Shown here piece by piece: positions 10,526 to 31,865 of a stretch of 64,000 nt of DNA (its first letter is position 1; each line of letters begins with the position of its first letter). The notes under the pieces were generated by a model that ran no database searches, was not told where the DNA came from, and saw only the letters and a program-made list of their open reading frames with translations. The stretch spans positions 398,409 to 462,408 of the forward strand of contig NZ_JABSPA010000001.1 of NCBI RefSeq assembly GCF_013214175.1. Direction: 5' to 3'. The translations under genes and the position numbers were made by a program. The DNA comes from Colwellia sp. (GTDB lineage Bacteria; Pseudomonadota; Gammaproteobacteria; Enterobacterales; Alteromonadaceae).

Positions 10526-10882
10526 TTGGAGAGTAGAATTTTGGAAGACGCTAGTATTTTTACACCGTATTATATTCTAGATATTTTAATGTCTGTCATA
10601 GCTGTTATCGTTAATTTCTTTGCTTATTTTTCATTGAAAAAAACATTTAAGCTTAAAAATGATAGTTACATATCTCATTTTTCAAAAGCGTTCCTTTTTT
10701 TCGGAATATCTACCTTGTTTAGTTTACTTTCTTTTATCACAATAATTATTCTCGTGGGAATTGCTGGGGACAGTCAATATTTTGATTTCTACGTTGACGT
10801 ACCTTATAACTTGGCATTTGCTGTTGGTTTATTTTATTTATTTCGAGGTGTAAAAAATACCCGCGTACTTAGAACAGCCTAA
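10526..10882 (+). CDS. Membrane protein, integron cassette ORF
   Basis: Hydrophobic ORF ending at attC. Confidence 0.7.
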   Translation: MESRILEDASIFTPYYILDILMSVIAVIVNFFAYFSLKKTFKLKNDSYISHFSKAFLFFGISTLFSLLSFITIIILVGIAGDSQYFDFYVDVPYNLAFAVGLFYLFRGVKNTRVLRTA

Positions 10883-10977
10883 CAAGGGTTTTCAAGTCGG
10901 ACAAATTACAGTTGGCTTTTTGTTCGTACCTCACTTATTTTAGCCAACTACAATCTGCCGCTTAAAACGGCGTTATG
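10877..10977 (+). other. attC recombination site 1
   Basis: GCCTAACAAG...ACAGTTGGCT...TAGCCAACTACA...CGGCGTTATG. Confidence 0.88.
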
Positions 10978-11023
10978 TGTTTTTGTAGTTTGGGTGAAAA
11001 TCTCAATATTTAAGGATTAATTT

Positions 11024-11266
11024 ATGCTGGAAGCAATAGTAGAAGGTTTCTTTTATACGCTAGGTGAAATATTAGCGTACACCTTATGGCCTTTACTTTA
11101 TTACTCTGGTTGGCTTGTATTAAAAGTTATAACCTTTGGCAGTTATCCTCCTAAATCAGATCCGATGTCTTTTAATCCAAACAATCACTCAAAAGTTTTT
11201 GTGCGTTTCGTTGGGTTCTTATTATGGTGCGCTGTCGGGTTTGTTGTGTTTAAATATGTTCTGTAA
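11024..11266 (+). CDS. Small membrane protein, cassette ORF
   Basis: ORF between attC1 and attC2. Confidence 0.7.
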   Translation: MLEAIVEGFFYTLGEILAYTLWPLLYYSGWLVLKVITFGSYPPKSDPMSFNPNNHSKVFVRFVGFLLWCAVGFVVFKYVL

Positions 11267-11273
11267 ATCAAAC

Positions 11274-11372
11274 ACATAACAAGCTGTTCAAGTGGGACAA
11301 ATTACAGTTGGCTGGTTCCGCTCCGCTGCACATTTTAGCCAACTACAATTTGCCCCTTAACAGGGCGTTATG
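11274..11372 (+). other. attC recombination site 2
   Basis: ACATAACAAGCTG...TACAGTTGGCT...TTTTAGCCAACTACA...CAGGGCGTTATG. Confidence 0.9.
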
Positions 11373-11406
11373 CATATACTCATTTACCGGTAGGAAGTTT
11401 GAATCA

Positions 11407-11949
11407 ATGAATATTTGGTTTCTTAGGATGGATAAAGATGGTTGGAGTGAGCTAGACCTCAATCAAGATTACAAGTTTATTCACAGTGCACACGGTAGTT
11501 GTGGCGGTGTAGATGTAGCTAAAAGATATAAGCACATGTTATTTCCAGAGTTAACTCTTAAAGGCAAAGAATTAGCGAAATTTATCCGTACAATTAAACA
11601 AAAATTAATTGTAAATGGTCTTTTTGATCTAGAGCAGTCGGGAAAGCGTCGATGTGATATTGCTCTGCGGTATTGGTTGTCAGAAATGAAGTTGGGTGAT
11701 TTAGTTTTTGTGAGAAATAAACAAGGAAAGGTAATACTCTGTAAAATTACAGGCTATATATCAGAGGAGTTCTTTGATAAGCGCGGTTGTTTTCAACGAC
11801 CCGTTGAAATTTTAAGTGAAATTGATGAATCTATGGTTCCTTCTGAAATATGGAATAGAACTCAAGGCCGTAAAACGATAGAAAGAAATGCCAAAAAGCA
11901 TATTACAGATTGGGTTACTAGTAATTACAAATCATTGGTTTGCTCATAA
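11407..11949 (+). CDS. Hypothetical cassette protein with PUA/EVE-like segment (uncertain)
   Basis: Start taken at MNIWFLRMDKDGW after attC2; the ORF-track start lies inside attC2. Confidence 0.65.
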   Translation: MNIWFLRMDKDGWSELDLNQDYKFIHSAHGSCGGVDVAKRYKHMLFPELTLKGKELAKFIRTIKQKLIVNGLFDLEQSGKRRCDIALRYWLSEMKLGDLVFVRNKQGKVILCKITGYISEEFFDKRGCFQRPVEILSEIDESMVPSEIWNRTQGRKTIERNAKKHITDWVTSNYKSLVCS

Positions 11950-11959
11950 TAAATAATAT

Positions 11960-12059
11960 GCCTAACAAGCTGTTAAACAAGGACAAAAAACAGTTAGTTT
12001 TTGCTCCTTCGTCGCTTATTTTAACCAACTATTTTATTGCCTGTTAACAGGGCGTTATG
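11960..12059 (+). other. attC recombination site 3
   Basis: GCCTAACAAGC...CAGTTAGTTTTTG...TTTTAACCAACT...GGGCGTTATG. Confidence 0.88.
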
Positions 12060-12067
12060 TGGTCCCC

Positions 12068-12841
12068 ATGAAGTTAAGCCTATACAAATATTTAGCCTAT
12101 GATGACGGCGCCAAAGCTTTACTAGAAAATAGTACATTAAAGTATAGTCATTTTAGTGAGTTCAATGATCCGTTTGACTGCGTTGTGTCTTATGATGTTG
12201 AAGATTCTCTTGTGTACTACCAATCTAGAAAAGACTTGATTAAAGCAGTAGGAGATAATCTAGGTTACAGTCCCTCAGAAAGAATCGAAAAGATGCCTAA
12301 ATTATTAAAAAATCTCGAAAAATCAATTGAGAGTGGTGATTTTCATAAAAGCATATTAAGTCGAATTGGTATTTGTTGTTTATCAAGTGTATCTGACAGT
12401 ATTTTAATGTGGTCGCATTATGCTGACCACCATAAAGGTATCGTCGTTGAATTCGATACTTTTCAAGATGAATACACAGAATTACATGACGTTGAGCAAA
12501 CATTATTAGGCTATCCAATTGTTTATCAGAATCAAATGCCCAGAATTAGTGCTCGCAATAGTCACGATGGTTTTTCAGCAGTACAAAGTTCAATTCTAAC
12601 TAAGTCACTTAGTTGGGAGTATGAAAATGAGGTGCGAGTTCTCTCAACTCGTTTAGGACCAGGTATTCATAAATTTGATCACACCCTCATATCCAGAGTT
12701 ATTACGGGTGTAAAAATGATAGATAAGGATCACTTAGATTTAGTTCAACGTGTTGCAAAAATAAATAAATCTAATGGGTTGTCAATAAAAGTGGTTAAAG
12801 CCAAAATGAGCAACGATAGCTATAGCGTAATCACCACATAA
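12068..12841 (+). CDS. DUF2971 family protein, cassette ORF
   Basis: YKYLAYDDGAKALLENSTLKYSHFSEFNDPFDC ... SDSILMWSHYADHHKGIVVEFD. Confidence 0.85.
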   Translation: MKLSLYKYLAYDDGAKALLENSTLKYSHFSEFNDPFDCVVSYDVEDSLVYYQSRKDLIKAVGDNLGYSPSERIEKMPKLLKNLEKSIESGDFHKSILSRIGICCLSSVSDSILMWSHYADHHKGIVVEFDTFQDEYTELHDVEQTLLGYPIVYQNQMPRISARNSHDGFSAVQSSILTKSLSWEYENEVRVLSTRLGPGIHKFDHTLISRVITGVKMIDKDHLDLVQRVAKINKSNGLSIKVVKAKMSNDSYSVITT

Positions 12842-12932
12842 CAAGCTAATTAATAAGGACAAAAAACAGTTGGCTGTTTTCGTTCCTCAACATTTTAGCC
12901 AACAATTTTTTGCCCATTATTAGGGCGTTATG
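12836..12932 (+). other. attC recombination site 4
   Basis: CATAACAAGC...CAGTTGGCTG...TTTTAGCCAACA...TAGGGCGTTATG. Confidence 0.9.
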
Positions 12933-12954
12933 TTGTTCAAGGAAGTCTGAGTCC

Positions 12955-13332
12955 ATGGAGAGGTCTGTATCAACTATCATCATTTTTTTACTACTGTTAC
13001 CTATTTCAGCTCATGCTGAAGTTATGGATAAAGAGCCATCACTTCAATTTAATTTTATTTGGGGCATTGGCGGCTCTATAGCCACGCTACTTTGTGCTAG
13101 ATACAAACCTAAATTCTTACCTTTAATTACCTTACTCCCACTATTTTACTTTTATGCACTGTGGGAAGAAATAAATGATCCACATGTTGGCCCACAGATT
13201 TTGAGAGAGGCTGGTGAATTTTACATTCACAGTGCATACGCTCTTGGTATATCTGTTATTTCTTGTATACCTATTGGGCTATTATGGTTTTGGTGGTATA
13301 AACAACATAACAAGCTAATAAATAAGGACTGA
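12955..13332 (+). CDS. Membrane protein, cassette ORF
   Basis: Start MERSVST; signal/TM segments; stop lies inside the following attC. Confidence 0.65.
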   Translation: MERSVSTIIIFLLLLPISAHAEVMDKEPSLQFNFIWGIGGSIATLLCARYKPKFLPLITLLPLFYFYALWEEINDPHVGPQILREAGEFYIHSAYALGISVISCIPIGLLWFWWYKQHNKLINKD

Positions 13333-13400
13333 AAATAGTTTGCTGTTTTCGTTCCTCAACATTTTAGCAAACAATTTTTAGCCCATTATTAGGGCGTTAT
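13303..13400 (+). other. attC recombination site 5
   Basis: CATAACAAGC...TAGTTTGCTG...TTTTAGCAAACA...TAGGGCGTTAT; covaries with attC4. Confidence 0.9.
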
Positions 13401-13419
13401 AAGCACCGGAAGCTTGAGT

Positions 13420-13752
13420 ATGATTCATAGGATAGTGGCAATCTCATTAATCTTTATTTTCTTATTAATTTTCACTGGGAAATTTGAGTATTATAGTGGT
13501 TTTAACACTTCACAAGCCGCTGTAAGTGAGTTTGATTCGGAAGTATCAGAAGATGCAGCAGGTGGCATTTTATATGTATATTTAATTGCTGCGTTTAGTT
13601 GTTACTGTTTATTATTCCCTAATTCAGTATCTGAGAAATTATCACCTCGTACAGGTAATATGCAAACACTACTGCTTAAAGACGACTTTTGGCTTATTGT
13701 CGGTTACTTTTCAGTTGCAGTAACCTTTTTAGTATTAGAGGCTTTCAGGTAA
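13420..13752 (+). CDS. Membrane protein, cassette ORF
   Basis: MIHRIVAISLIFIFLLIF...; between attC5 and attC6. Confidence 0.7.
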   Translation: MIHRIVAISLIFIFLLIFTGKFEYYSGFNTSQAAVSEFDSEVSEDAAGGILYVYLIAAFSCYCLLFPNSVSEKLSPRTGNMQTLLLKDDFWLIVGYFSVAVTFLVLEAFR

Positions 13753-13756
13753 TGTG

Positions 13757-13859
13757 CTTATAACAAGCCAATTAAAGTGGACAAATAACAGCTTGGCTTT
13801 TTGTTCACTTCGTTCACTAATTTTAGCCAAGTATTATTTGCCCGTTATTGGGGCGTTAG
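13757..13859 (+). other. attC recombination site 6
   Basis: TTATAACAAGCC...CAGCTTGGCT...TTTTAGCCAAG...GGGGCGTTAG. Confidence 0.88.
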
Positions 13860-13880
13860 TTACCAAGGAAAGGTTAGAGT

Positions 13881-14372
13881 ATGATTCGTAGTTTTATTAA
13901 TAAATTTGGTTCGATTTTGTATGTCCAGATATGGGAAAACCGTATCAGAGTTGTTGATTTAAAAACTAATGAAGTGTTTGATGAGAAACCTTTACTTCAA
14001 ATCGAAACAGGAAAGAATGGAAGTAAAGTAGTTACAGCCTTTGGTAACAGCGCTTATATTAGTACAGTAAATCCCTTTTCTCACCCCAGGGCATTACTTA
14101 ATGACTTTTATATTGGGGAACGTTTACTTCAACTAATCGTAAAAAAACTTATTGGCAAAAAATTTATAACTTCGGCTCCTCAAATAATTATTCATCCAAT
14201 GGAAAAAACAGATGGTGGTTTAACCATGATAGAAGTTAGAGCATTTAGAGAAATGGCGTTGGGAGCTGGTGCAAGTGAAGTTGCAATACATCAAGGTAAA
14301 GATACATTGGAGTTATCAAAAATAATTTTCAAAGATCTTATAAAAGATGATGAACATTTAGTATTTAAATAA
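13881..14372 (+). CDS. Truncated MreB/actin-like protein, cassette ORF
   Basis: IEVRAFREMALGAGASEVAIHQG aligns by eye to MreB [24 protein letters not shown]; colinear N-terminal half, only 163 aa. Confidence 0.7.
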   Translation: MIRSFINKFGSILYVQIWENRIRVVDLKTNEVFDEKPLLQIETGKNGSKVVTAFGNSAYISTVNPFSHPRALLNDFYIGERLLQLIVKKLIGKKFITSAPQIIIHPMEKTDGGLTMIEVRAFREMALGAGASEVAIHQGKDTLELSKIIFKDLIKDDEHLVFK

Positions 14373-14377
14373 TTGGC

Positions 14378-14478
14378 AACTAACAAGTAAATCAACAAGG
14401 ACACGTAACAGTTGGCTACGTTTCGCTTCGCTACACAATTTTAGCCAACCATTACTTAGCCTGTTATTTGGGCGTTAG
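14378..14478 (+). other. attC recombination site 7
   Basis: AACTAACAAG...CAGTTGGCTACG...TTTTAGCCAACC...GGGCGTTAG. Confidence 0.9.
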
Positions 14479-14492
14479 CTATTCAATCAAGG

Positions 14493-15104
14493 ATGTGTAT
14501 GTACTCTAAAATATTAACTACTTTTTTCTTAATCTTTTCATTTCATGCAGTTGCCGGTGTTTCAATCACAACAGTGAGTAAAACAAAGAATGAATTGAAA
14601 ATTAAAAGCTCTCTTGAGTCTCTACAAGAAAAGTATGATCTAACTCCTTGGATTATTACTGATGTCATCGAGGTCGATGAAAAAGCAAGAATGCCTCGAA
14701 GCCATCCAGTTTTAACGATGAGTACAAAGGATGAATATTTAAAAAGCGATATTAAGCTTCTTTCATCTTTTCTTCATGAGCAATCTCACTGGCATGTAAT
14801 TAAAAATGGTCGTGGTAGTAAGTCAGAGTTCAGAGCTGCAATAAAGGCTAATTTTCCAAATGTTCAATTTGAACGGCCATTAGGCAGTGGTACTGAAGGT
14901 GGCACCCTTAGTCATATAATTGTTTGCTATCTAGAGTATGTTGCACTTTCGGAGCTTATTGGTAAAGAAAAAGCTATTCAAAACCTATCAACAAACGACT
15001 ATTACACTTGGGTCTATCAAACAATTATTAACTCAGAAAATCATGATAAATTAGATCGTCTTGTTCAAAAGTTTGGCTTAGGTTTTGGCGTAAATAATAG
15101 CTAA
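14493..15104 (+). CDS. Secreted HExxH-motif protein (putative metallopeptidase-like), cassette ORF
   Basis: N-terminal signal peptide-like MCMYSKILTTFFLIFSFHAVAG; motif HEQSHWH. Confidence 0.65.
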   Translation: MCMYSKILTTFFLIFSFHAVAGVSITTVSKTKNELKIKSSLESLQEKYDLTPWIITDVIEVDEKARMPRSHPVLTMSTKDEYLKSDIKLLSSFLHEQSHWHVIKNGRGSKSEFRAAIKANFPNVQFERPLGSGTEGGTLSHIIVCYLEYVALSELIGKEKAIQNLSTNDYYTWVYQTIINSENHDKLDRLVQKFGLGFGVNNS

Positions 15105-15198
15105 CAAGAAAATCAACAAGGACACGTAACAGTTGGCTACGTTTCGCTTCGCTACACAATTATAGCCAACCATTACTTAGCCTGTTATTTGGGCGTTA
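15099..15198 (+). other. attC recombination site 8 (near-identical to attC7)
   Basis: GCTAACAAGAAAATCAACAAGGACACGTAACAGTTGGCT...TATAGCCAACC...GGGCGTTAT. Confidence 0.9.
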
Positions 15199-15627
15199 TC
15201 GATACAAAATCTAATCCTAATCACCGCTACTGATTAAATGCTAATGTCCGCAATGTGGTAAAAGTGAGCCTTAGCTTTTAACCAATGAATAGTGAAAGAC
15301 AGTTCAATGCTAATGACTTCTTGGTGCGCAAAGTTGAAGTTAACTTCAAAATATTTGCGATATATTTTCTAATGAATGTTTATTTTATTGTTAGTGTGTT
15401 CCTATACAGTAGGCTGTGATTCCTGCTTTCTACAAGAAAGAGCGGATATTTCCTCCTTTCACACATCGAACAGTTGATTGGTTATTTTTAACTCATTGAT
15501 CTACAGACAACAATCAAGTAATCTCGCATGATTATAAATTATTGACGATTAACTCCACCTTGTAGAAAAAAGGGATTTTTCCTCATAATAAAGCTGTTGA
15601 TTCGACCCCGAAAATGTAGAGATTAAT

Positions 15628-16893
15628 ATGAGAAAAATCCTATTAGGTGAATTGTTTGGTATTGCTGTAAGTCGACCAATCGAATTGGATAATATTGTTC
15701 AAATAGTTGAAATTATTCCAGAGGTAGCTATAGAACAAGCGAATCTAGATGGTAAAACCTTTGATGATGCTATGAACAATATTATAAGTGAGGTTTTAGA
15801 TTTTGCAGAACGACTTGAGCCAGAAGAATCTGAAATATTCTTAGAACTATTTGAAAACGAGTGCTCTACTAGAATGACAAAATCAGTTGATAATGACTTT
15901 GAAATTATTGACCCATCAGAAACAAAGTGGAATTTTTATATCCGGTTCAAAGTTTCCGAACCTTTAGGTTTGGATCAGAACGTCATAGACTTCCTCGGAA
16001 AATATATAATCAAGCCAGCTAAAAAACAGTCATTAAAAGACGATAATATCCTGATTCTGACAAGCTTAGATAGTATGACCTATCGTGAGATAATGTTTGA
16101 GTCAAAAAAGGTTGAGCAAGCTTTAATATTAGGCCTTGCGGAGTTAGGTATTGGGGTTGCTTACCCCGAAAACTTAGCTTCAGAAGCTACGCTTGAAAAA
16201 GTAAAGAGAGAAGCTGAAATTCAGTTCTTAGAACAACACACTAAACTATATGATTCATATTATGAAAGACCCTTGTTTCATTTCAGTGATAAGTTTGGTG
16301 TGGTTTTGTTTCAAGAAGGATCATTTCCTTGGGATAGCAACGCTAATGAAGAAAAAGAACCAGTAGATGTAACTAAGCTTGATGCGATATTTTCTACTGC
16401 CTATGACAACCTGAAAGGCTTGCAGATCATAGGAAGGAAGTTTAATAAAATCGAGATCGCCACATCCATACTAACTACATCTATTTTTGAAGATTCACTT
16501 ATTAATAAGATAATACTCTCAATGACAGTTATAGAAGTATTGTCGGATAAAGTATCTAGGAGTGATAAAGAGCTCAGAGTTCTGGATTATCTAACCAATG
16601 TGTTGGATGAGAAGTCTGATATTGCACAGAGTGAAAAGGAAGCTATCACTAAAGCCCTAACTTCATTGAGGTATCAATCAATTAGTAAGAATTGTAAGGT
16701 TTTAGTAAAGGAGCTACTTAGTGGGAAAGACGCAAAATTATTTTACAAGCTTTATAATTACAGATCTCAGTTAGTTCACGCTGGTGTTTTAGAAAGTAAT
16801 CGTGATGAAATGTTGAAGATATATTATGACTCTTATAGTTTGGCAAAAAGAGTGCTATCGGCATATATAAATCGACTAGATGAATCTGATTAA
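15628..16893 (+). CDS. HEPN-like (Apea-like) protein, cassette ORF
   Basis: C-terminal KLFYKLYNYRSQLVHAG, consistent with the HEPN Rx4-6H motif. Confidence 0.6.
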   Translation: MRKILLGELFGIAVSRPIELDNIVQIVEIIPEVAIEQANLDGKTFDDAMNNIISEVLDFAERLEPEESEIFLELFENECSTRMTKSVDNDFEIIDPSETKWNFYIRFKVSEPLGLDQNVIDFLGKYIIKPAKKQSLKDDNILILTSLDSMTYREIMFESKKVEQALILGLAELGIGVAYPENLASEATLEKVKREAEIQFLEQHTKLYDSYYERPLFHFSDKFGVVLFQEGSFPWDSNANEEKEPVDVTKLDAIFSTAYDNLKGLQIIGRKFNKIEIATSILTTSIFEDSLINKIILSMTVIEVLSDKVSRSDKELRVLDYLTNVLDEKSDIAQSEKEAITKALTSLRYQSISKNCKVLVKELLSGKDAKLFYKLYNYRSQLVHAGVLESNRDEMLKIYYDSYSLAKRVLSAYINRLDESD

Positions 16894-16948
16894 TGCTTTG
16901 TTAAATCTTACAATGACTTTTATCCAATAAACAGTGTAGCGTATAATC

Positions 16949-17044
16949 ACATAACAAGGCAATTAAACGGAACTAAAACAGTTGGTTAAGTTTCGTGCCT
17001 CAACATTATAACCAACAATTTTAGTCCGCTTATTGCGGCGTTGG
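16949..17044 (+). other. attC recombination site 9
   Basis: CATAACAAGG...CAGTTGGTTAAG...TATAACCAACAATT...GCGGCGTTGG. Confidence 0.88.
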
Positions 17045-17081
17045 TGAGCAAATCAAAATCCAGGCTGTAAAGTAGCGATTA

Positions 17082-17708
17082 ATGAGCAGTAAGGTGAATT
17101 ATATGAATCCATTCTTGGAAGAACTTTTTGATATCATTGCTATTGATGCTGAGTATCTAAATGGGTACTTAACACCAGGTGAGATGAAATATCTAAATAT
17201 CACTTTGAAGTCTATAGAAGATTTGAATAGCGATTTCTACACAGCAGAACATGGTTTAAACCTAGAAGTTTTACTTTTCTTTTTATTGAAACATTTGAAG
17301 GATATTACACTAATTTGGGAAGATCGTAGTAAAAAGGAAATTCTGCTTAGGTTATATACATCAAACATAATCTCTGGCTATGATTGCTTCCGTTTTGATC
17401 TGTCTAAATTTGAGCAAACATTTAACCCAAGTGGACAAGAGTTGACTTTATATCGAATTGGTCGTGCGAATGAGACTATAGAAAGCCTCGGGAATTCATG
17501 GGCTAAAGACTTCACAGGACTAAAAAATTATGTTCAAGCATCAGCTATAGAGGTGGATACCCGACCTATATTTTCTATAAAAATTAGTGATTCAGAGGTT
17601 TTGTGTCAAGGGCAATCGCAAGAAAGTGAATTTATCTTAAATAAAAATTTCAAATGTAGTGGTATTAGATTACTAAGGGCTGAAGAGCGTAGTAAAATTT
17701 TTATTTAG
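17082..17708 (+). CDS. Hypothetical protein, possible ADP-ribosyltransferase-like fold, cassette ORF
   Basis: LYRIGR...GNSWAKDFTGLKNY...ISDSEVLCQGQSQESEFIL pattern suggestive of R-S-E; weak. Confidence 0.5.
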   Translation: MSSKVNYMNPFLEELFDIIAIDAEYLNGYLTPGEMKYLNITLKSIEDLNSDFYTAEHGLNLEVLLFFLLKHLKDITLIWEDRSKKEILLRLYTSNIISGYDCFRFDLSKFEQTFNPSGQELTLYRIGRANETIESLGNSWAKDFTGLKNYVQASAIEVDTRPIFSIKISDSEVLCQGQSQESEFILNKNFKCSGIRLLRAEERSKIFI

Positions 17709-17732
17709 TAAATAGTGCTAAGAAATGCTTCA

Positions 17733-17749
17733 CCTAACAAGGCATTATG
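17733..17749 (+). other. Collapsed attC remnant
   Basis: CCTAACAAGGCATTATG: R'' end joined directly to R'-like end with no palindrome between two cassette ORFs. Confidence 0.5.
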
Positions 17750-18262: not shown

Positions 18263-19225
18263 ATGGAACCTACAGTATTTATATCTTATTCCCATGATGA
18301 TGAATCACATAAAGATTGGGTATTACAGCTTGCTACAAGGCTGAGATCTAACGGACTTAATGTCTTATTAGACCGTTGGAATCTGAAGTTAGGTCAAGAT
18401 TTAGCTTCATTTATGGAAAGAGGGTTATCTGCATCAAATAGAATAGTTAGCATTTGTTCAGAAAGTTATGTTCAAAAAGCCAATGATGGATATGGCGGTG
18501 TCGGATATGAAAAGCAAATAATGACGGCAGAATTGATGTCTGATTTAAATACAAACTGGGTAGTACCAGTAATCAGAAATAATAGCACAGCTAAAAAGGC
18601 GCCTATTTTTTTAGCTGGGAGGCTATATGTTAGCTTTGAAAATGAATCTTTATATGAAAATTCTTATGAAGAGTTATTACGTGAATTGCTAGATGAACCA
18701 GTACTTCCTATACCACTAATAGGAGAAAACCCATTTAAAACGGCTAAATATTTTGCAGAGCAAAAATTTATACCTGCCTCGGAAAAGTATGTTTCACCTG
18801 CGGTTAAAGGGACTGTAACTTTTGATTACTCAAACAACAATGGGCATTATTTTATTGGGCAAGGCCAATTGGCATTCGAGTTAGATTTTTCTAAATCAAG
18901 TGACAGGTGTATACAGCTTTATAATGATCCACAGAATATAAGAACGGTTGCTGTAGTAAAGGATCGTCACTCTATCTCCGATATCGATGATGCAAGAGTT
19001 TATGATGGTTCATCTAGAGTTCGAAGACCAAACCTTAATCAAATAGCAGTAGTACAAAATGTAAATGGCTTTTTTGCAGCAATAAAAATTATAGACATAA
19101 AAGATGATACTCGTGGCAGTGAATCTGACGAGGTGTCGTTCGAATATGTGATACAAACAAATGGTAGCCCAGATTTCACATCTACTGGTCAAGACTGCAT
19201 ACAAGGCGTTCAAACGGACAAATAA
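18263..19225 (+). CDS. TIR/SEFIR-domain protein, cassette ORF
   Basis: MEPTVFISYSHDDESHKDWVLQLATRLRSNGLNVLLDRWNLKLGQDLASFMERGL; novel ~150 aa C-terminal region. Confidence 0.85.
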   Translation: MEPTVFISYSHDDESHKDWVLQLATRLRSNGLNVLLDRWNLKLGQDLASFMERGLSASNRIVSICSESYVQKANDGYGGVGYEKQIMTAELMSDLNTNWVVPVIRNNSTAKKAPIFLAGRLYVSFENESLYENSYEELLRELLDEPVLPIPLIGENPFKTAKYFAEQKFIPASEKYVSPAVKGTVTFDYSNNNGHYFIGQGQLAFELDFSKSSDRCIQLYNDPQNIRTVAVVKDRHSISDIDDARVYDGSSRVRRPNLNQIAVVQNVNGFFAAIKIIDIKDDTRGSESDEVSFEYVIQTNGSPDFTSTGQDCIQGVQTDK

Positions 19226-20463: not shown

Positions 20464-21660
20464 CTAATTCAACATTAAGGGCGGTGCACGAGGCAAATAC
20501 AAGTGCGGTAAGACTTCAGTGACTTCCATGCCTGCGCCACAGCAAGGACACACAAAGGTAGCTGCTGGCTCATGCGTTTTTGTCTCACCCGATATCTCTT
20601 TATCCAATGGCACTATCGGGACTTTAACGTTTAATAACTGTCGTGCTTTATCCAAGTTCTTCTTACGACCTGTATTCGCTGTCAAACCGTAATGACGAAT
20701 ACGGTGAAAACCACTGGGTAACACATGCAGCAAAAAACGTCGGATAAACTCATCGTGAGTCAGCATCATGGTGCGGTGTCTATTCTGCTCTTTAACGCGA
20801 TAGTTCTTCCACTTGAAACTGACCGTTTGTTTATCCATAGCAACCAATCGTGAGTTTGCGATAGCAACCCGATGTGTGTATCTCGATAGATAAGCCAATA
20901 CAGCTTGTGGCCCTGCAAAGGGTCGTTTGGCATAAACCACCCATTCAACGTTACGTTGATTGTTTAGCCACGCCAAAAAAGGTATTTCTTCCTCAATAGG
21001 CAAACACTTACCAAAGAACAGTAACTCATTATGCTCAAAGGCTTCGCGTAACATCTCAAGATATAATCGTCGAAATAAACGTGATAACACGCGTACAGGT
21101 AAGAAGAATCCTGCTTTACACGACACCCAGTTTTCACCATCAAGCGATAAGCCACCACCCGGTACAATGCCATGCACATGGGGATGATGCGTCATGGCAC
21201 TGCCCCACGTATGCAAGACAAAAGTCACACCTAAGCGAGCACCTAAATGTTTAGTATCCGCGCCAATCGTTAACAGTGTTTTGGCAGCGGCTTTGAGTAA
21301 CAAAGCATACATTACCGACTTATTGTAATAAGCCAACTCACTAATGGCGTTGGGTAACGTAAATACCACATGATAGTAATCCACTGGCAATAACTCAGTT
21401 TGTCTAGCAGTTAACCAACGTTTCGCTGCGCTGGCTTGGCACTTTGGGCAATGACGATTGCGACACGAGTTATAGGCAATTTGAGTATGCTCACACGCAG
21501 GGCAATGTAAAACATGACCACCGAGCACTTCACTGCGGCAATGCTCAACGGCAGACATCACTTTGAGTTGCGCTAAACTGACATGGCCTACATGACTATC
21601 ACGCCAACGTTGGCCGTGTGCTCGAAAGACATCGGCGACTTCCCGTGTTGGGCGAGGCAT
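20464..21660 (-). CDS. IS91 family transposase
   Basis: Zinc-finger HCPACEHTQIAYNSCRNRHCPKCQ, HHPHVHGIVPGGG, YLSRYTHRVAI. Confidence 0.93.
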   Translation of the reverse strand: MPRPTREVADVFRAHGQRWRDSHVGHVSLAQLKVMSAVEHCRSEVLGGHVLHCPACEHTQIAYNSCRNRHCPKCQASAAKRWLTARQTELLPVDYYHVVFTLPNAISELAYYNKSVMYALLLKAAAKTLLTIGADTKHLGARLGVTFVLHTWGSAMTHHPHVHGIVPGGGLSLDGENWVSCKAGFFLPVRVLSRLFRRLYLEMLREAFEHNELLFFGKCLPIEEEIPFLAWLNNQRNVEWVVYAKRPFAGPQAVLAYLSRYTHRVAIANSRLVAMDKQTVSFKWKNYRVKEQNRHRTMMLTHDEFIRRFLLHVLPSGFHRIRHYGLTANTGRKKNLDKARQLLNVKVPIVPLDKEISGETKTHEPAATFVCPCCGAGMEVTEVLPHLYLPRAPPLMLN

Positions 21661-21667
21661 GAGCGGC

Positions 21668-22546
21668 TCAATGCTTTATCGACAATGAATCTAATGGGCT
21701 GATAACTTGTCTGAGTAGATCAGTGGCCACTTGCGTATACCGCGCCGTGGTATTCAGTTGAGCATGCCCTAGTAATACCTGAATCACGCGAATATCTACA
21801 CCCGCTTCAAGTAAGTGCGTAGCAAAACTATGACGTAACGTGTGCATTGATACATTCTTGTCAATGGCCGCGGCCTTAGCGGTTTGTTTACATATTCTAC
21901 TGAGATGGCGAGAGGTCATATGATCGATAGGGTTCAAGCCAGGAAATAACCAACTACCTTCAAACATTTGGCCTTCATTGTTCGCAAAACGCCACCAATC
22001 CCGAAGATGCTCAACCAGTGCGGGTGATAACAGCGCATAGCGATCACGACTGCCTTTACCTTGCTCAATACGCAGGATCATACGCTCACTATCGATATCA
22101 CTCACTTTTAAAGCCACCACTTCACTGACACGTAATCCCGAGCCATAACCGACGGCTAACGCGGCTTTGAATTTAGGATGCATGGTACAAGACATAAAGC
22201 GCTTAGCCTCGTCTAGACTCAGCACCACAGGTAACTTACGTGCAACCGTCACAGGACAAACCCGTGCGATGACTTCAGGTTTATCGAGTGTTATTTTGAA
22301 TAAGAACTTAAGTGCGGTTAGCGTGGCATTGACGGTGATACCAGAAACACCGTGAGTGACCATGAAAAGTTGGAACTCACGCAACTCTTCTTGGGTGGAT
22401 GTTTCAGGAGAGTGTTGTAAAAATTCACAGAATTTATTAACACCACGGATATAAGAAATTTGTGTGTTAGTGGCGAGTTTACGCAGGATCATGTCTTCGT
22501 TGATGCGCTGACGCAGTGGTACTGAAAAGTATGGGCTGATGTTCAT
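21668..22546 (-). CDS. Tyrosine recombinase associated with the IS91-family element
   Basis: SYGSGLRVSE-type box, HTLRHSFATHLLEAGVDIRVIQVLLGHAQLNTTARYT; immediately upstream of the IS91-type transposase. Confidence 0.9.
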   Translation of the reverse strand: MNISPYFSVPLRQRINEDMILRKLATNTQISYIRGVNKFCEFLQHSPETSTQEELREFQLFMVTHGVSGITVNATLTALKFLFKITLDKPEVIARVCPVTVARKLPVVLSLDEAKRFMSCTMHPKFKAALAVGYGSGLRVSEVVALKVSDIDSERMILRIEQGKGSRDRYALLSPALVEHLRDWWRFANNEGQMFEGSWLFPGLNPIDHMTSRHLSRICKQTAKAAAIDKNVSMHTLRHSFATHLLEAGVDIRVIQVLLGHAQLNTTARYTQVATDLLRQVISPLDSLSIKH

Positions 22547-24425: not shown

Positions 24426-24520
24426 GCTAACGCCGCAATAAGCGGCATGTAATTGTTGGCTAAAATGTGAAGAGAATCTGAAGTTGGCCTACTGCTACAT
24501 GTCCGAATTCATTAGCTTGT
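24426..24520 (-). other. attC recombination site, reverse orientation (13), split by the IS110-family element
   Basis: Reverse complement: CAAGCTAATGAATTCGGAC...TTTTAGCCAACAATTACATGCCGCTTATTGCGGCGTTAGC; missing R'' end found across the IS at 25721-25735 (GCCTTAACAAGTTA). Confidence 0.75.
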
Positions 24521-24572
24521 ATGGATAATACATCCATCTTTTTATTCTTTTCAAAACCAGTTTAGGTAAAGT

Positions 24573-24712
24573 GAGGCCCAAGCTTTGGCTGCAACCAAAG
24601 CCTTTTTATACGGTGTTCGATTGATTGCAGGCTCCTCTATTGAGAGACCGATAACAAGATGGAACGCCGTATAAAACTCCAAGCACTAAACTCGGATAGT
24701 CAACTGGGCCTC
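24573..24712 (+). ncRNA. Candidate bridge RNA (IS110-group left-end structured RNA)
   Basis: Nested complementarity: outer stem 24573-24580/24705-24712; hairpin 24582-24588/24595-24601; 12-bp stem 24607-24618/24662-24673 with TAACAAG (24652-24658) in its internal loop. Confidence 0.5.
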
Positions 24713-24744
24713 GAGCCCGAATAGCAAGGCAGAGTCAGCTTATT

Positions 24745-25698
24745 ATGAATACACAAAATAATCAAAATTAAATTAACGTCGGTGTCGATACCGGTAAAAC
24801 TCAACTCGACATTTACATACGTCCCTTAGATATTTATTTCAACGTTTCGAACGATGAAACTGGTATTAAAGAGGCCATTAAAACAATCAAAAAATACAAT
24901 GTTACCCGTGTGGTTATTGAAGCCACTGGCCGATTAGAACAGCCTTTTATAATGGCGTGTGCAAAAGCTAATATACCGTTTATTATTGCCAATCCTGTCA
25001 ACACCAAAAGGTTTGCAGGTGCCATTAATCAAAGAGCCAAAACAGATAAATTAGATGCACAATTAATTGCCCATTATGCAGAAGTTATCAAACCTAAGTT
25101 ATCACAATTAAAGCCAGAGCAGATAAGGCTGATGAGTGATTTACTATCACGTAGACGTCAGCTTATGGAAATGCAAACCATGGAGAAAAACCGTCTGCAA
25201 ATAATGCCCAAAGAAATAACTTCTTCTATTAAGCCTATGCTTACAGTGATAAAAAATCAGTTAGAAAAAACAGATAATAAATTACATAAACTCATCGAAA
25301 GCTGTGAAGAATATAAAACTAAAAATGACATTGTTCAAAGCATCCCTGGTGTTGGAAATGTCGTGGCCTTTAACTTAATTAGTGAAATGCCCGAGCTCGG
25401 CTATATCAACAATAAAGAGGCGGCATCATTAGTCGGTGTCGCTCCTTTTAATAGGGACAGTGGCTCGTATAAAGGCAAACGAATGATACGAGGTGGACGA
25501 TCACAAATTAGAACAGCCATTTACATGGCAATGATGTCCGCGATTCAATGTAATCCAACATTTAAAGCAACATATCAACGATTAGTTGCTGCAGGGAAAC
25601 CTAAAAAAGTAGCGATAATAGCGTGTATCAGAAAGCTTGTTATCACGCTAAATTCTATGGTGAGAGATGGTGTCTATTGGGATCCTAAAATGAATTAA
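24745..25698 (+). pseudogene. IS110 family transposase with in-frame stop at codon 9
   Basis: MNTQNNQN*INVGVDTGKTQLDIYI...VVIEATGRLEQP...IPGVGNVVAFNLISEMPELG...LVGVAPFNRDSGSYKGKRMIRGGR; TAA at 24769-24771. Confidence 0.75.
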
Positions 25699-25727
25699 AT
25701 ATTAGGGTTTGACACCATAGTAACTTG

Positions 25728-26225
25728 TTAAGGCACTTTTTTCTCTACATCAAGAACTTTTAAATAAGAGTCCAAATCAGTTTTGGTTATTTTTTTGTCT
25801 TTTATGAGCTTTGTAAATTTATCATCGAAGTTTATGGTTTTTAAATTTGATGATGAATTATCTTTGTAGTACATCAACCCCGTGGCTAAAACATTAAACT
25901 GATTTGAGTTAAGAGATTGAAGTTTTACTGAAGCTGTTAGAGAAATATGATCTCTATTAGGGTGAGCTGCAACAACAAAAAGTTTTAATGAATCTATTGT
26001 TGAACGGCTCTCACCGATACTCGATTTGATACCGTTATAATGAATATCTAACTTTTTAGAAATTTCAGTAATGCTTTTCGCCATCGATTCGGACTCTTTG
26101 GTAAGACTTTTCTCAAGTTGCGCTATTTTTATTTGATTTTCCTTAACAACAAAGGTGTAACCAAAAAAACCTAGAATTACTGCGGTAATTACTGCGACTA
26201 ATACTTGTTTAGTAACATCATTCAT
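25728..26225 (-). CDS. Membrane-anchored hypothetical protein, probable inverted cassette
   Basis: Start MNDVTKQVLVAVITAVILGFFGY; stop TAA overlaps attC R'' (GCCTTAACAAG). Confidence 0.65.
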   Translation of the reverse strand: MNDVTKQVLVAVITAVILGFFGYTFVVKENQIKIAQLEKSLTKESESMAKSITEISKKLDIHYNGIKSSIGESRSTIDSLKLFVVAAHPNRDHISLTASVKLQSLNSNQFNVLATGLMYYKDNSSSNLKTINFDDKFTKLIKDKKITKTDLDSYLKVLDVEKKVP

Positions 26226-26541: not shown

Positions 26542-26943
26542 TTAATATTTGATTTTTGGTAAGTAGGTCTGCTTTGAAGTGCCATTTTTATAGTCGGTGA
26601 TATCATCTTGCAATGCCTCGATAACATTAAGTTGTGCTTCGCAAATAGACGCCAGTTGGTCGCGCTCTTTCTTGCAGGCTTCATAGCGTTCCTCAATGGT
26701 TCGTTTCTTGCGAAGCGCTTTCTTTTTAATATCAACTTCGCTGTCAATATTTTGTAGCTTCAGATAATCTTGAATCTCCAAAACAAGCAGTGGGAAACGG
26801 TCCTTCTTAAGCGCCGTTGGATGCTTACCTGCCTCTTTAGCTACGTTGTTTTGGCTAACTGCAGTACCTTTAGCCACGTTGAGTGGAGTATTACTTTTTA
26901 GTCGCTTATACGCCTCTCTAAATATATTCTCGGCTTTACTCAT
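26542..26943 (-). CDS. Small HTH/coiled-coil protein associated with the recombinase operon (TnpC/GmtX-like position)
   Basis: SQNNVAKEAGKHPTALKKDRFPLLVLEIQDYL plus coiled-coil; overlaps stop of the upstream recombinase gene. Confidence 0.65.
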   Translation of the reverse strand: MSKAENIFREAYKRLKSNTPLNVAKGTAVSQNNVAKEAGKHPTALKKDRFPLLVLEIQDYLKLQNIDSEVDIKKKALRKKRTIEERYEACKKERDQLASICEAQLNVIEALQDDITDYKNGTSKQTYLPKIKY

Positions 26944-28919
26944 TTTACATTCCCTTTTTTAGAATCAATGACAGCTAATACTCTTTCATAACCTCTCATT
27001 TCCGCTTTTAACGAACTGTATTTAGGTGAATCTTTAGGGAAATCATTCATTTGGTTTTCATAGTATTGTTTATCTTCCGTAAATTCCTGACGCTTAGAAC
27101 CATCAATAATTAAGTCAGTACACATGTTGCTGCTATTCCCGCCAGAGCAGTGAGTAACAGTTTCAAAACCACCATACTCACAGGAACCTTGCTTCATACA
27201 GCCACCAAGTAAGTTTTTGCGATAACCAATAGCGCCATTTTTTTGAGCTGCTCTGAGTTTTTTATGTTCGCCATTTGTTACAAAATGCACTATCTCGGCC
27301 TTGACGGGGGCTTTACTATGCGGAAGCACTTTACCGTCATCCCCTTCAGTTACCGCAATGATTTCTCTTGCCATTTCATTGTAAAATTCGAGTGTAACCT
27401 CTTGGCTTGCTAATATATTTAATTTTAATCGACCATGATTATTCATATAATGAAACTGTTGCTCACGAGTACCATGCTTCATTTGGAATTGCCCTGTTGC
27501 GGCAGAGACGTCATTCAACGCAAACATGACAGCTAATGTCCGCCTGAACTGGTGATAACCAAAAGCCCAAATACCTCCTACTTTAAACCATTTTTCTCTT
27601 TCAAGCGATGGCGTTAATGCAATCGCCTTATCAAAGTCATCTTGTGTGATTTTGTACTTTTCTACCCCCCAAAATGTAGCGTGACGACTCATAATGTTGT
27701 GCGCATTGCGAGTATTTAAGGCTTTATAATTGTGTACAGATTCAACCCAAACATCGACGCGTTGGAATAGATATGGAGATTCACTGTCATTTGTCAATTT
27801 TAAATGACTCTGCTTCCACTCAACCAATGTTTTAGCAACCTCCACCGCCTTCTGAACTCGATGATTGACTATCCACCTAGCATCGGATTCTGGGTCTGTT
27901 TTTGTGGTTTCACCAACAAGCATAAAGAAATTGCCGAGTCGTTCATCCTTTTCAACAATCAAGCAATCGGTTCTTAATGACTTAGCCTCACTCATTCTCA
28001 TAAGAGAATAAAACAGGACGTAAAAATAACAAGCAGTTACCGTCGCATTTAAACGGGCACCAAACTTTTTTATCGTATAGTCACGCAAGGTTCCTTCAAT
28101 AATATGATGTTTTTCGTACCATTCACTAAGGCCATGGTCTCTTAGGAATGACTTGAAAGAAGCGTATTTAGTCAAATAGTTCGGAGTCTTTTCAGCAAAA
28201 GGAGATATCGAACACGATGCACTTTTCGCGTTTTTTTTATTTTGAATCAGAGTGCGGGTAATCCAATGATAAGCCTTTTCAAGTTTGTCTTTATTTTCTA
28301 TAAAATCATCGAGAACCCCATCTAAATGGTGAATGAAATTATTCCAAATTGCAGGGGGGATGTAGGCAATTTGCCCTAATTCGTATTCGGGGTTAAATAG
28401 GGAAAAGTGAGCGATGGACTTTGCATCCAGCAAATGAAATCCGATTTGCTCTTGGTTTTTCAATAGACTGGTAAACAACCAAACAGCACTTTTAAATTCA
28501 GACTTTGCTTGAGAGTTCGCAATCTGCTCAATGACCCGTGGGAACTGCCTCAATTCATCGGCACAAATACCTTGCTCGCTACACGCTTTAAATACTTTTT
28601 GTAAAATTTTGTATGGGGCTATTAGAGAAAGGTATTTACCAGGAAATAAATGACTATAAATTTTATAAAACATGATTTTCTTGAATAGTGTTTTATTTAC
28701 ATCGTCATATTTTTTGAAGTGCATTTTACGAGTTGAACCAAACACGCTAAAATCCCACACGTCATCCCCATATCGCGATATCACTGTACCATCTTCATTA
28801 ATCGACATTGCAAAGTCATCATTAGGAGGGTAGGCAATAGATTTAAAGCATGAAGATTTTTCTGTGACAAATTCAAACTCAGCTCTAAATTGGAGGTTTT
28901 CAATCGTGTTTTGTTGCAT
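26940..28919 (-). CDS. Tyrosine recombinase-like protein (659 aa)
   Basis: LMRMSEAKSLR, FGYHQFRRTLAVMFAL, GTREQQFHYMNNHG; Cys-rich C-terminus. Confidence 0.75.
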   Translation of the reverse strand: MQQNTIENLQFRAEFEFVTEKSSCFKSIAYPPNDDFAMSINEDGTVISRYGDDVWDFSVFGSTRKMHFKKYDDVNKTLFKKIMFYKIYSHLFPGKYLSLIAPYKILQKVFKACSEQGICADELRQFPRVIEQIANSQAKSEFKSAVWLFTSLLKNQEQIGFHLLDAKSIAHFSLFNPEYELGQIAYIPPAIWNNFIHHLDGVLDDFIENKDKLEKAYHWITRTLIQNKKNAKSASCSISPFAEKTPNYLTKYASFKSFLRDHGLSEWYEKHHIIEGTLRDYTIKKFGARLNATVTACYFYVLFYSLMRMSEAKSLRTDCLIVEKDERLGNFFMLVGETTKTDPESDARWIVNHRVQKAVEVAKTLVEWKQSHLKLTNDSESPYLFQRVDVWVESVHNYKALNTRNAHNIMSRHATFWGVEKYKITQDDFDKAIALTPSLEREKWFKVGGIWAFGYHQFRRTLAVMFALNDVSAATGQFQMKHGTREQQFHYMNNHGRLKLNILASQEVTLEFYNEMAREIIAVTEGDDGKVLPHSKAPVKAEIVHFVTNGEHKKLRAAQKNGAIGYRKNLLGGCMKQGSCEYGGFETVTHCSGGNSSNMCTDLIIDGSKRQEFTEDKQYYENQMNDFPKDSPKYSSLKAEMRGYERVLAVIDSKKGNVK

Positions 28920-28921
28920 CG

Positions 28922-30580
28922 TTATGCCTCATACTTCTGTATTTTTCGTTCCCAACTGGGGTGATATTCGCCTTCGTCAATTCGCATTTTCGCTTCTTCA
29001 ATCCATTCTTTATGTACTGAGTTTTCAGATCTATTGAACCAATTTATTTTTGAGTTCACCCAGTCAATCGCGATGTTCGACGGTTTTTGTCCATCGTCCA
29101 GATATGAGCTTGATTCAATGACCTTTAAGTATCGGAAGCTAAAAAGGTTCCATACGTATACTAATGAATCATCGTCTCTATAATTCTTACACCCCATACA
29201 GCCGCTTGGGGTTAAACAGTCAGGCTTTGCGAGTTTATCGGTTGCATCATCAAAGGGTACTGGTTCACCTGTACAAGCAGTACTGAATAAGGACAACTTG
29301 GGCTCTCCATGCTCTAGTGGGTCATTAGCCTCCCAGAAACGTGTAAGCTCAACCGCTGCTCGCTGTTGGGAAGGAAATTCATAGGACTCTCGAAAAATCT
29401 CCAAGCTATGATTGCCGTGGTCTGCTGTGGCTTGTTCATCAGATGACAGTCTTAATAATATATTTAGACCTATCTTCCTAAAGTTTTTCGGTGCAATAGT
29501 GGGGATACTATAAGTTCTTGCTAATTTTGTACCTGTAGCCCAATCAGAATCCCTTCTTTTCCTATAAGCACCTTCATGGGTGAGCATAGGAAATAGATGT
29601 CCATTGCTCTCGGCATACTCGCGTATGAACGTTAAATATGCCTCAAACGACTTTCTGTATGGTTTGGGGATTTTAAAAAGCACTTCGCCGCCTCTACGGT
29701 TTTTAAATGCTCGCACTTCATAATTTTCACCCATCGGTTTAAAATCACAATCTTGCATTCTTAAGCTGAACGTTGGGGCGGGGTTTTGCATGGTCATCGC
29801 TAGAAACATTAAACACTCAAAGGCCACTCTATTATTAAAGGCATGTCTTGCGGCAGTCTCTGTATAATCGCCAGAGACAACAGTGTCATCTTTAATAACG
29901 GGGGTGAGATTTATTTCTGTTGCGGTTAATTCCTTTCGCACATTAACTAAGATGGGTAATTTTTTGCTATTTAGTAATTTGGGGTCAAAGTTGTTACATA
30001 TATCATAAGCGAACTTAGCAAACTTAGCCGCATCTTCAAGATTCGTTTTATCAGCCTCGCGACTTATAGCTCTGCGTGAGTTTCTCTTTGGCTTTAACCG
30101 TGTCGATTTAATATCAATACTGTCTAGTTCAGTGATTGCTGATAACAATTTGGATAAGTGGTAACAAGCTTTATAACCAGAGCCTTGTTTAAATTTTATT
30201 TTATTTTGCTGCTCACGAATAAACTCATATTCAGCGAACGTATAAAAAGCGGTTTGAATATCGTTAGCTATATCAATTGATATATTTTTTTTATCACAAA
30301 AAGAGATGAATACTTTTAAAAATTGGATGCGGCCTTTAGCGCTCGATGAGGCCATTTCGCCGATGTCCAAGCACCCTTCGATATGTTCCTTTGCTTTAAC
30401 TAGCCATTTAACTCGATGTTCAACGACTGAAAGTTTATAAACATTATTAAGATATTTTTTACTTCTATGCACCTTCCCTCCGCCATTAAAGGCCATAGGT
30501 GTTAAGTCCCAAGCACCTGACTCTGGCTGCTCAATTCTTCGATGCACAACTATTAAGTTTGGTAGCTTTTCATCCATCAT
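28922..30580 (-). CDS. Tyrosine recombinase-like protein, degenerate (552 aa)
   Basis: PKNFRKIGLNILLRLS...DHGNHSLEIFRESYE; CLTPSGCMGCKNYR Cys motif; overlaps neighbouring recombinase. Confidence 0.65.
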   Translation of the reverse strand: MMDEKLPNLIVVHRRIEQPESGAWDLTPMAFNGGGKVHRSKKYLNNVYKLSVVEHRVKWLVKAKEHIEGCLDIGEMASSSAKGRIQFLKVFISFCDKKNISIDIANDIQTAFYTFAEYEFIREQQNKIKFKQGSGYKACYHLSKLLSAITELDSIDIKSTRLKPKRNSRRAISREADKTNLEDAAKFAKFAYDICNNFDPKLLNSKKLPILVNVRKELTATEINLTPVIKDDTVVSGDYTETAARHAFNNRVAFECLMFLAMTMQNPAPTFSLRMQDCDFKPMGENYEVRAFKNRRGGEVLFKIPKPYRKSFEAYLTFIREYAESNGHLFPMLTHEGAYRKRRDSDWATGTKLARTYSIPTIAPKNFRKIGLNILLRLSSDEQATADHGNHSLEIFRESYEFPSQQRAAVELTRFWEANDPLEHGEPKLSLFSTACTGEPVPFDDATDKLAKPDCLTPSGCMGCKNYRDDDSLVYVWNLFSFRYLKVIESSSYLDDGQKPSNIAIDWVNSKINWFNRSENSVHKEWIEEAKMRIDEGEYHPSWERKIQKYEA

Positions 30581-31865
30581 AACGGCCTGTTAAGCCTTCG
30601 ACTAATTCGTCAGTTTGTTCAACACTACCTGTGAACATTGCCCATAATGATTCATAGAACGCTTTATCTTGCGGCACTTTATTGATAAACGCCACATACT
30701 TCCAAGTCGTTGAAGCGTCTTTATGGAGCATGGCATCTCGCACAAATTCAATCGCACCACTACTTGAGATAGCCTTTGAATTTAAACAATGTTCCATCGT
30801 CATCGTTCCGAAAGTCGCTCTTAATTGATGGAATTTGAAACGACCAAATTCGGTATGACCTAGCTCGACCAATTCAGCTCTCAATCTACCGATAATCGTT
30901 GAGAACGATGCTCTTGTATATAGGTTGCCACAAGAGGTTAAGAATATGTTTTTTATATGTTCGTTGGACGCTTTAGAACGCCTGAGTATTGCTTCAGCCG
31001 AATCATAGTAATCAACAAGCTCTTGAAGTAATACCTGAGGAAACATGATCGGTCCGCTCACATCGAACTTAGTTTTAACAGCCGTTGATGGGCCAACACT
31101 TACTCTCATTATGTGTTTCATGTTGGGATCTTGATAAGCGTTTTTTAACGCTTCAGAGGTCAGCGTTGAAATTGTTTCGTAACGACAACCTGTTTGAATA
31201 GCAACTTTATGAAATAAATATAGTTCATAGTTACTATGATTTGTAAGGTGTAGCATTAGGGTGTCTAATGATTCTTTGTTCAATGGGAGCAGCCCATCCT
31301 CTAATGTTACCCCCGTTCTTCTTTTATTAGGTATGAATAGTTCCGAAGACATAACGTTCATCGTTCTTGAAAATCCAGTCCTATCAAAGAACTTAACTGC
31401 CTTGGATTTTTCTTCCCACATATCATACCTGCATTGAGCAAGCATTTCTCGTGAGGCCCAGCGGTAGAAATTTAAAGTTGAATTCATTACAGCAGATACT
31501 GTTGATGGTGCTAAATGATGATTCTCTCGACATTCAATCAAGAAGCCTTTAAACCGAAACAAGCAACGCTCTCGCTTCTTCTTTGGGAAGTGAAGCCAGT
31601 GAATATTCCCTTTCTCAAGCCAATCAGCATATCTGGCAATGTGACTCATTTCACGGCTTACTGTGTTTAATTTCATTCGTGAATCGTAGAAACGGCTAAA
31701 GGCATACTGGTTGGCTTCTTTCCAAGGCTCCCCATCTGCTGAGTATATTTGTGGAAATGACTTAACAAGCTTGGACTTAGGTTTTGGGATAAACCCATGC
31801 TTAGCATCTGGAGACAAAGGACTATATATCATTGATTGATGATATATGGTTTCTAGGACTGACAT
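30570..31865 (-). CDS. Site-specific tyrosine recombinase (431 aa), first gene of recombinase operon
   Basis: IQTGCRYETISTL, FKFHQLRATFGTM, MLHKDASTTWKYV: R...HxLR...H...Y layout. Confidence 0.85.
   Translation of the reverse strand: MSVLETIYHQSMIYSPLSPDAKHGFIPKPKSKLVKSFPQIYSADGEPWKEANQYAFSRFYDSRMKLNTVSREMSHIARYADWLEKGNIHWLHFPKKKRERCLFRFKGFLIECRENHHLAPSTVSAVMNSTLNFYRWASREMLAQCRYDMWEEKSKAVKFFDRTGFSRTMNVMSSELFIPNKRRTGVTLEDGLLPLNKESLDTLMLHLTNHSNYELYLFHKVAIQTGCRYETISTLTSEALKNAYQDPNMKHIMRVSVGPSTAVKTKFDVSGPIMFPQVLLQELVDYYDSAEAILRRSKASNEHIKNIFLTSCGNLYTRASFSTIIGRLRAELVELGHTEFGRFKFHQLRATFGTMTMEHCLNSKAISSSGAIEFVRDAMLHKDASTTWKYVAFINKVPQDKAFYESLWAMFTGSVEQTDELVEGLTGRYDG

What the first reader, a model, noticed from the sequence alone, without database searches (positions are those of the whole stretch)
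24573..24712. Candidate bridge RNA in the 5' non-coding end of the IS110 element, carrying the attC R'' heptamer in an internal loop
Upstream of the transposase lies a nested fold: outer 8-bp stem GAGGCCCA/TGGGCCTC, hairpin GCTTTGG-CTGCAA-CCAAAGC, and a 12-bp stem TATACGGTGTTC/GAACGCCGTATA. The last encloses ...CCGATAACAAGATG.... TAACAAG is the attC R'' consensus and is the complement of the target CTTGTTA. IS110-group elements encode bridge RNAs in their left ends whose loops pair with target and donor. The guide assignment here is inference; a single 7-mer could arise by chance.
Basis: partly seen in the sequence, partly recalled or inferred. Interest (0 to 1): 0.76.

Follow-up and report, generated by a model that had tools for sequence, protein, structure and literature searches.

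The report
Bridge RNA aiming IS110 at integrons
A jumping DNA element in a marine bacterium carries a guide RNA whose sequence matches the joints between integron gene cassettes, and over a hundred relatives sit in those joints, so RNA-guided targeting of integrons also exists in the IS110 branch and not only in the IS1111 branch where it was known.

Summary
The named stems and the TAACAAG loop are at the stated places. The element spans 24518-25725 and sits inside an integron attC site, between R'' and the rest.

I collected 151 distinct bridge-RNA copies from Alteromonadales, Vibrionaceae and other gammaproteobacteria. Compensatory changes support the fold. The right target guide is the reverse complement of the right junction in 105 of 117 copies. 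One natural variant (L095) changed both target guides together with both target halves. The left guide tracks its own left flank far beyond permutations. The left donor guide equals the element's own right end in 106 of 117, in five alleles. Joined flanks match uninterrupted attC sites for 59 of 100 copies.

The window copy is probably dead: its transposase has an early stop and its donor end one mismatch. attC targeting by IS1111 elements is known; I found no report of it for IS110-type elements with an upstream bridge RNA.

The parts
24518..25725 (+). IS110-type element, 1208 bp counting one copy of the core CT (right copy 25724-25725; left copy 24516-24517)
   Evidence: Start and end shared by relatives; rejoined flanks give an attC
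24573..24741 (+). Bridge RNA core (5' stem-loop, target-binding loop, donor-binding loop); ends of the transcript not mapped
   Evidence: Alignment and covariation of 34 relatives; model R1 finds it in other genomes
24582..24601 (+). 5' stem-loop GCTTTGG-CTGCAA-CCAAAGC
   Evidence: 97.1% of cells paired, all 7 pairs with changes on both sides
24607..24673 (+). Target-binding loop: stem 24607-24618 with 24662-24673, apical hairpin 24630-24649
   Evidence: 95.0% of cells paired in the stem, 7 of 10 pairs with changes on both sides
24620..24629 (+). Left target guide ATTGATTGCA; matches left flank ATTCATTA(G) at 6 of 8 in the shifted register
   Evidence: Guide types track own left flanks
24652..24658 (+). 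Right target guide TAACAAG, reverse complement of right junction CTTGTTA at 25724-25730
   Evidence: 105 of 117 copies exact
24681..24741 (+). Donor-binding loop, outer stem AAGC..ACTC / GAGT..GCTT, apical hairpin 24706-24718
   Evidence: model R1 aligns it to the IS621 donor loop
24696..24702 (+). Left donor guide ATAGTCA
   Evidence: Equals the element's own right end in 106 of 117 copies, five alleles
24719..24728 (+). Probable right donor guide GAATAGCAAG (ATA.CAAG against CTTGTAT of the left end)
   Evidence: Position and likeness to the IS621 right donor guide; pairing inferred, donor sequence hardly varies
24573..24580 (+). 5' arm GAGGCCCA of the outer stem, partner 24705-24712; alternative to the donor-loop hairpin
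   Evidence: 91.9% of cells paired in 34, at least 91% per pair in 110 sequences
24745..25698 (+). IS110-family transposase gene, interrupted by TAA at 24769-24771 (codon 9)
25709..25714 (+). TTGACA, -35 of the junction promoter formed on the circle with GATAAT at 24524-24529, spacer 17
   Evidence: TTGAC[AG]-N17-GATAAT in 94 of 101 copies; sequence only
25717..25723 (+). Left donor ATAGTAA, one mismatch to the guide ATAGTCA
24426..24515 (-). attC, part from R' (24426-24433) to the insertion point
   Evidence: Rebuilt site
25724..25734 (-). attC, R'' end (GCCTTAACAAG on the minus strand)
   Evidence: Rebuilt site

Best explanation
The feature is the bridge RNA of an IS110-type (IS621-like) insertion sequence specialised for integron attC sites. 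Likely working: the excised circle rebuilds a sigma-70 promoter across its joined ends and transcribes the 5' non-coding end. The RNA binds the transposase. Its first internal loop pairs with the attC site: the left guide has the sequence of the left half and so pairs with the bottom strand, and the right guide TAACAA[G/A] pairs with the top strand [C/T]TTGTTA of the R'' box. Its second loop pairs with the element's own joined ends (ATAGTCN and CTTGTAT). The transposase then exchanges strands at the 2-bp core without duplicating the target. Shown here by sequence: fold, guide-target and guide-donor correspondence across more than 100 insertions, uninterrupted sites, junction promoter. Inferred: transcription, protein binding, catalysis. 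The window copy has a transposase stop at codon 9, so it could move only if a transposase were supplied in trans.
For: Covariation of the fold. Right guide exact in 105 of 117 copies, left donor guide in 106 of 117. Left guide tracks flanks. L095: guides CTAACAG and TAATAAG with target CTAACAG|CT|TATTA. Uninterrupted attC: 20 in the own genome, control 0; 59 of 100 joined flanks match an uninterrupted site. Transposase nearest to IS621 and ISCro4 in PDB with the DEDD residues aligned. Upstream non-coding region 227 nt against 27 nt downstream. Model R1 hits the IS621 donor loop, E = 0.0085. Junction promoter 94 of 101.
Against: No RNA or activity data. The right guide hardly varies in the clade, so target tracking on that side rests on one true variant (L095) plus core-base changes. 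Tree-based sign tests agree without exception but have too few independent changes. In the window the left guide fits its own flank only moderately and the donor end has a mismatch.
Confidence: 0.9

Rival explanations
1. The transposase itself recognises attC (for instance as a folded single strand), and TAACAA[G/A] in the loop is a structural motif conserved by descent that resembles R'' without guiding.
For: The motif is nearly invariant in the clade; attC is known to fold.
Against: Left guide and left flank vary together, L095 changes both halves together, donor guides follow donor ends, and IS621 relatives are shown to be RNA-guided (PMC11208160).
Confidence: 0.05
2. The element is a member of the known IS1111-attC group with an unusually placed non-coding region.
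For: Same kind of target; a few IS1111 members have an upstream non-coding region (PMC11187229).
Against: Upstream non-coding region, no subterminal inverted repeats found by a simple comparison, bridge-RNA donor loop and protein nearest to IS621. A tree with IS1111 references was not possible.
Confidence: 0.05
3. Copies sit at attC only because cassettes carrying the element spread through integrons, not because of targeting.
For: Several copies have atypical left flanks (for example L029, L121, L122).
Against: Over 100 junctions fall at the same base and orientation within attC, next to different cassettes, and uninterrupted versions of the same sites exist.
Confidence: 0.02

Closest known systems
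IS621 and its bridge RNA (Durrant 2024, PMC11208160; structure PMC11208158)
   Same: Upstream RNA with 5' stem-loop, target loop, donor loop; order left then right guide; left end starts core CT + TGTAT; junction promoter; IS110 transposase
   Different: Targets REP elements, not attC; transposase about 27% identical; the window clade has the extra 5' arm that can pair with the donor loop, and a left guide that is mostly shifted by one base
IS1111-attC group (ISKpn4, ISPst6, ISPa25, ISPa21; PMC11187229, PMC11616780; Tetu and Holmes 2008 and Post and Hall 2009 known only through citations)
   Same: RNA-guided insertion at one end of attC sites of gene cassettes
   Different: RNA downstream of the gene, guides in the reverse order, subterminal inverted repeats; a different branch of the superfamily
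ISEc21 (IS110 type, PMC11187229)
   Same: Upstream guide RNA, IS110-type transposase
   Different: Targets a site inside IS3-family transposase genes; protein about 21% identical
Group IIC-attC introns (cited in PMC9229058)
   Same: RNA-based mobile element found at attC
   Different: A ribozyme retroelement, unrelated in mechanism

Membership tests
IS110 family (IS621-type, bridge RNA) | DEDD transposase with N-terminal RuvC-like domain and C-terminal Transposase_20 domain | tested here: met
   Pfam PF01548 and PF02371; NF033542 above cut-off; D, E, D, D and the serine region align with IS621. The window copy has an early stop; 96 of 151 copies are open
IS110 family (IS621-type, bridge RNA) | Long non-coding region upstream of the gene | tested here: met
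   227 nt upstream, 27 nt downstream; 19-27 nt downstream in relatives
IS110 family (IS621-type, bridge RNA) | Structured RNA with target and donor loops | tested here: met
IS110 family (IS621-type, bridge RNA) | Guides correspond to both target halves and donor ends | tested here: met
   Right target and left donor guides, left target guide; right donor guide only by likeness to IS621
IS110 family (IS621-type, bridge RNA) | Scarless insertion at a 2-bp core, circle with junction promoter | tested here: inconclusive
   Joined flanks equal uninterrupted sites and promoter sequence is present; circle and transcription not observable here
IS110 family (IS621-type, bridge RNA) | RNA is expressed and binds the transposase | not testable with these tools
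   Needs experiment
IS1111-attC group | Insertion in attC | tested here: met
IS1111-attC group | Non-coding region downstream of the gene | tested here: not met
   Only 27 nt downstream
IS1111-attC group | Subterminal inverted repeats | tested here: not met
   Only weak A+T-rich matches between the first and last 40 nt
IS1111-attC group | Transposase inside the IS1111 clade | not tested
   No IS1111 reference protein could be fetched (one search failed)

The most novel reading that the evidence does not exclude
The bridge RNA of this clade is a two-state switch: a conserved 5' arm (GAGGCCCA) pairs with the same bases as the donor-loop hairpin, so the RNA can hold its donor loop closed until the arm is removed or displaced, for example by processing or by the recombinase.
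Probability: 0.2. Interest if true: 0.65.

Novelty: new variant of a known kind. Interest (0 to 1): 0.52.

Why it matters
RNA-guided insertion into integron cassette joints was tied to the IS1111 branch. An IS110 branch with a different RNA layout does the same, so attC seems to have been adopted as a guide target more than once. Insertion splits attC and may freeze cassettes, so such elements can shape the large cassette stores of Vibrio and Alteromonadales. The clade also offers a natural series of matched changes in target guides and donor guides, useful for learning how far bridge recombinases tolerate changes of spacing and core.

Tried and rejected
Rfam gave no match in the window, so no published model applied. 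Reading the left guide against the left flank in one register gave poor matches for many copies; allowing a one-base shift resolved much of this. I first took the G/A switch of the right guide as proof of target tracking; the table of left and right cores suggests that the right core base travels with the element while the left core base is the target's own, so I downgraded that part. I tested whether the outer stem and the donor hairpin coevolve: columns 11, 145 and 151 look like a three-way A-T-A / G-C-G switch (57 and 26 of 110 sequences), but on a tree the coordinated changes are too few (1.7 of 9 pairs concordant, none opposite), so this stays unproved. The covariance model did not turn up relatives with clearly non-attC guides. 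An IS1111 reference could not be fetched. Tetu and Holmes 2008 is not held.

Full report
What was checked. Rfam has no family that matches.

The element. Relatives show where similarity starts and stops: the element runs from 24518 to 25725, with a core dinucleotide CT at both edges. The gene 24745-25698 has both IS110-family domains, passes the NCBIfam model 'IS110 family RNA-guided transposase' and is closest among solved structures to IS621 and ISCro4. The non-coding region is upstream, 227 nt against 27 nt downstream. In the window the gene has a TAA at codon 9, and the right end ATAGTAA has one mismatch to the donor guide ATAGTCA. The other left-end copies examined in this genome are truncated or degenerate. 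So the local copies are probably dead, while 96 of 151 collected copies keep an open frame of 300 aa or more.

The target. Rejoining the flanks gives a 101-nt attC from R'' GCCTTAAC to R' GCGTTAGC. The same genome has 20 uninterrupted sites of the form AACTGTT....GTCC...CTTGTTA, none for the reversed control pattern, and an integron integrase above the family cut-off on another contig. Across relatives, 59 of 100 joined flanks align straight through the junction to an uninterrupted attC in the fetched DNA, for example L028 at 98.9% over 94 nt. Insertion is therefore precise and duplicates nothing but the core.

The RNA. An alignment of 34 left ends supports a 5' stem-loop, a target loop and a donor loop: 96.9% of cells paired, 18 of 36 pairs with changes on both sides, against at most 41% paired when slid. 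A model built from it recognises the donor loop of E. coli IS621, E = 0.0085.

The guides. I took 151 distinct copies from searches of Alteromonadales, Vibrionaceae and other genomes. The right target guide is the reverse complement of the right junction in 105 of 117 copies with a located right end; several of the rest look like right ends that the script mislocated or broken copies, which I did not resolve one by one. The left donor guide equals the element's right end in 106 of 117, in five alleles including ATACTCG and ATAGCCC. A distant relative, L219, shows a sixth, ACAGTCA, on both sides. The left target guide, 58 types, matches its own flank at 5.58 of 8 positions against 4.01 when guide types are permuted. 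In most copies with a good match the guide is displaced by one base from the IS621 arrangement, in others it is not; attC spacers differ by a base, which may be the reason (inference). L095 is the clearest natural experiment: guides CTAACAG and TAATAAG, target CTAACAG|CT|TATTA.

Caveats on the guides. The first core base at the right end appears to belong to the element and that at the left end to the target: the left core varies (CT, TT, AT, GT) while the right core follows the guide. Tree-based tests agree without exception but have too few independent changes to be significant. Permutation of left guides does not remove the effect of host lineage: related hosts share attC types, which is also what guidance predicts.

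The outer stem. Each can form in nearly all of 110 distinct sequences. It may be a conformational switch or a by-product of shared ancestry; the tree test does not decide.

Literature. IS1111-group elements that target attC, and their seekRNAs, are known (PMC11187229, PMC11616780), as are bridge RNAs of IS110 elements (PMC11208160). A Shewanella integron survey found IS110 elements in cassette arrays but no IS interrupting attC (PMC9229058). I found no report of IS110-type elements with an upstream bridge RNA aimed at attC, in a library that lacks most subscription papers. The two annotated records that I opened call the relatives only 'IS110 family transposase', without an element name.

Verdict. 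A real, conserved guide RNA, a new variant of a known kind: IS621-type layout, attC target. The targeting claim is strong by comparison of many natural insertions; the mechanism in cells is inferred from IS621.

Noticed in passing
10880-17735: Ten TAACAAG sites on the plus strand, four of them within the 20 attC-like sites, between short plus-strand ORFs: an uninterrupted cassette array in the opposite orientation to the attC that the element occupies.
   Followed up: partly
24573-24580, 24705-24718: Mutually exclusive conserved pairings: the 5' arm and the donor-loop hairpin compete for the same bases.
   Followed up: partly
L095 and copies listed: Natural changes of the left guide, and a one-base shift between left guide and core in most copies, unlike IS621.
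   Followed up: partly
left and right cores of copies: Left core varies (CT, TT, AT, GT) while right core follows the RNA, as if the left core base came from the target and the right one from the element.
   Followed up: partly
20464-22546: IS91-family transposase next to a tyrosine recombinase; a second recombinase copy lies about 50 kb further on the same contig.
   Followed up: no
26542-31865: Run of minus-strand genes of 133, 659, 552 and 431 aa; only the 431-aa one shows a weak phage-integrase match, below the cut-off. Possibly a recombinase trio.
   Followed up: no
18263-19225: TIR/SEFIR-domain protein, possible defence gene.
   Followed up: no
L073, L077: Copies with the standard right guide but right flanks TTGCAT and TTGAAT: possible off-target insertions or later rearrangements.
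   Followed up: no
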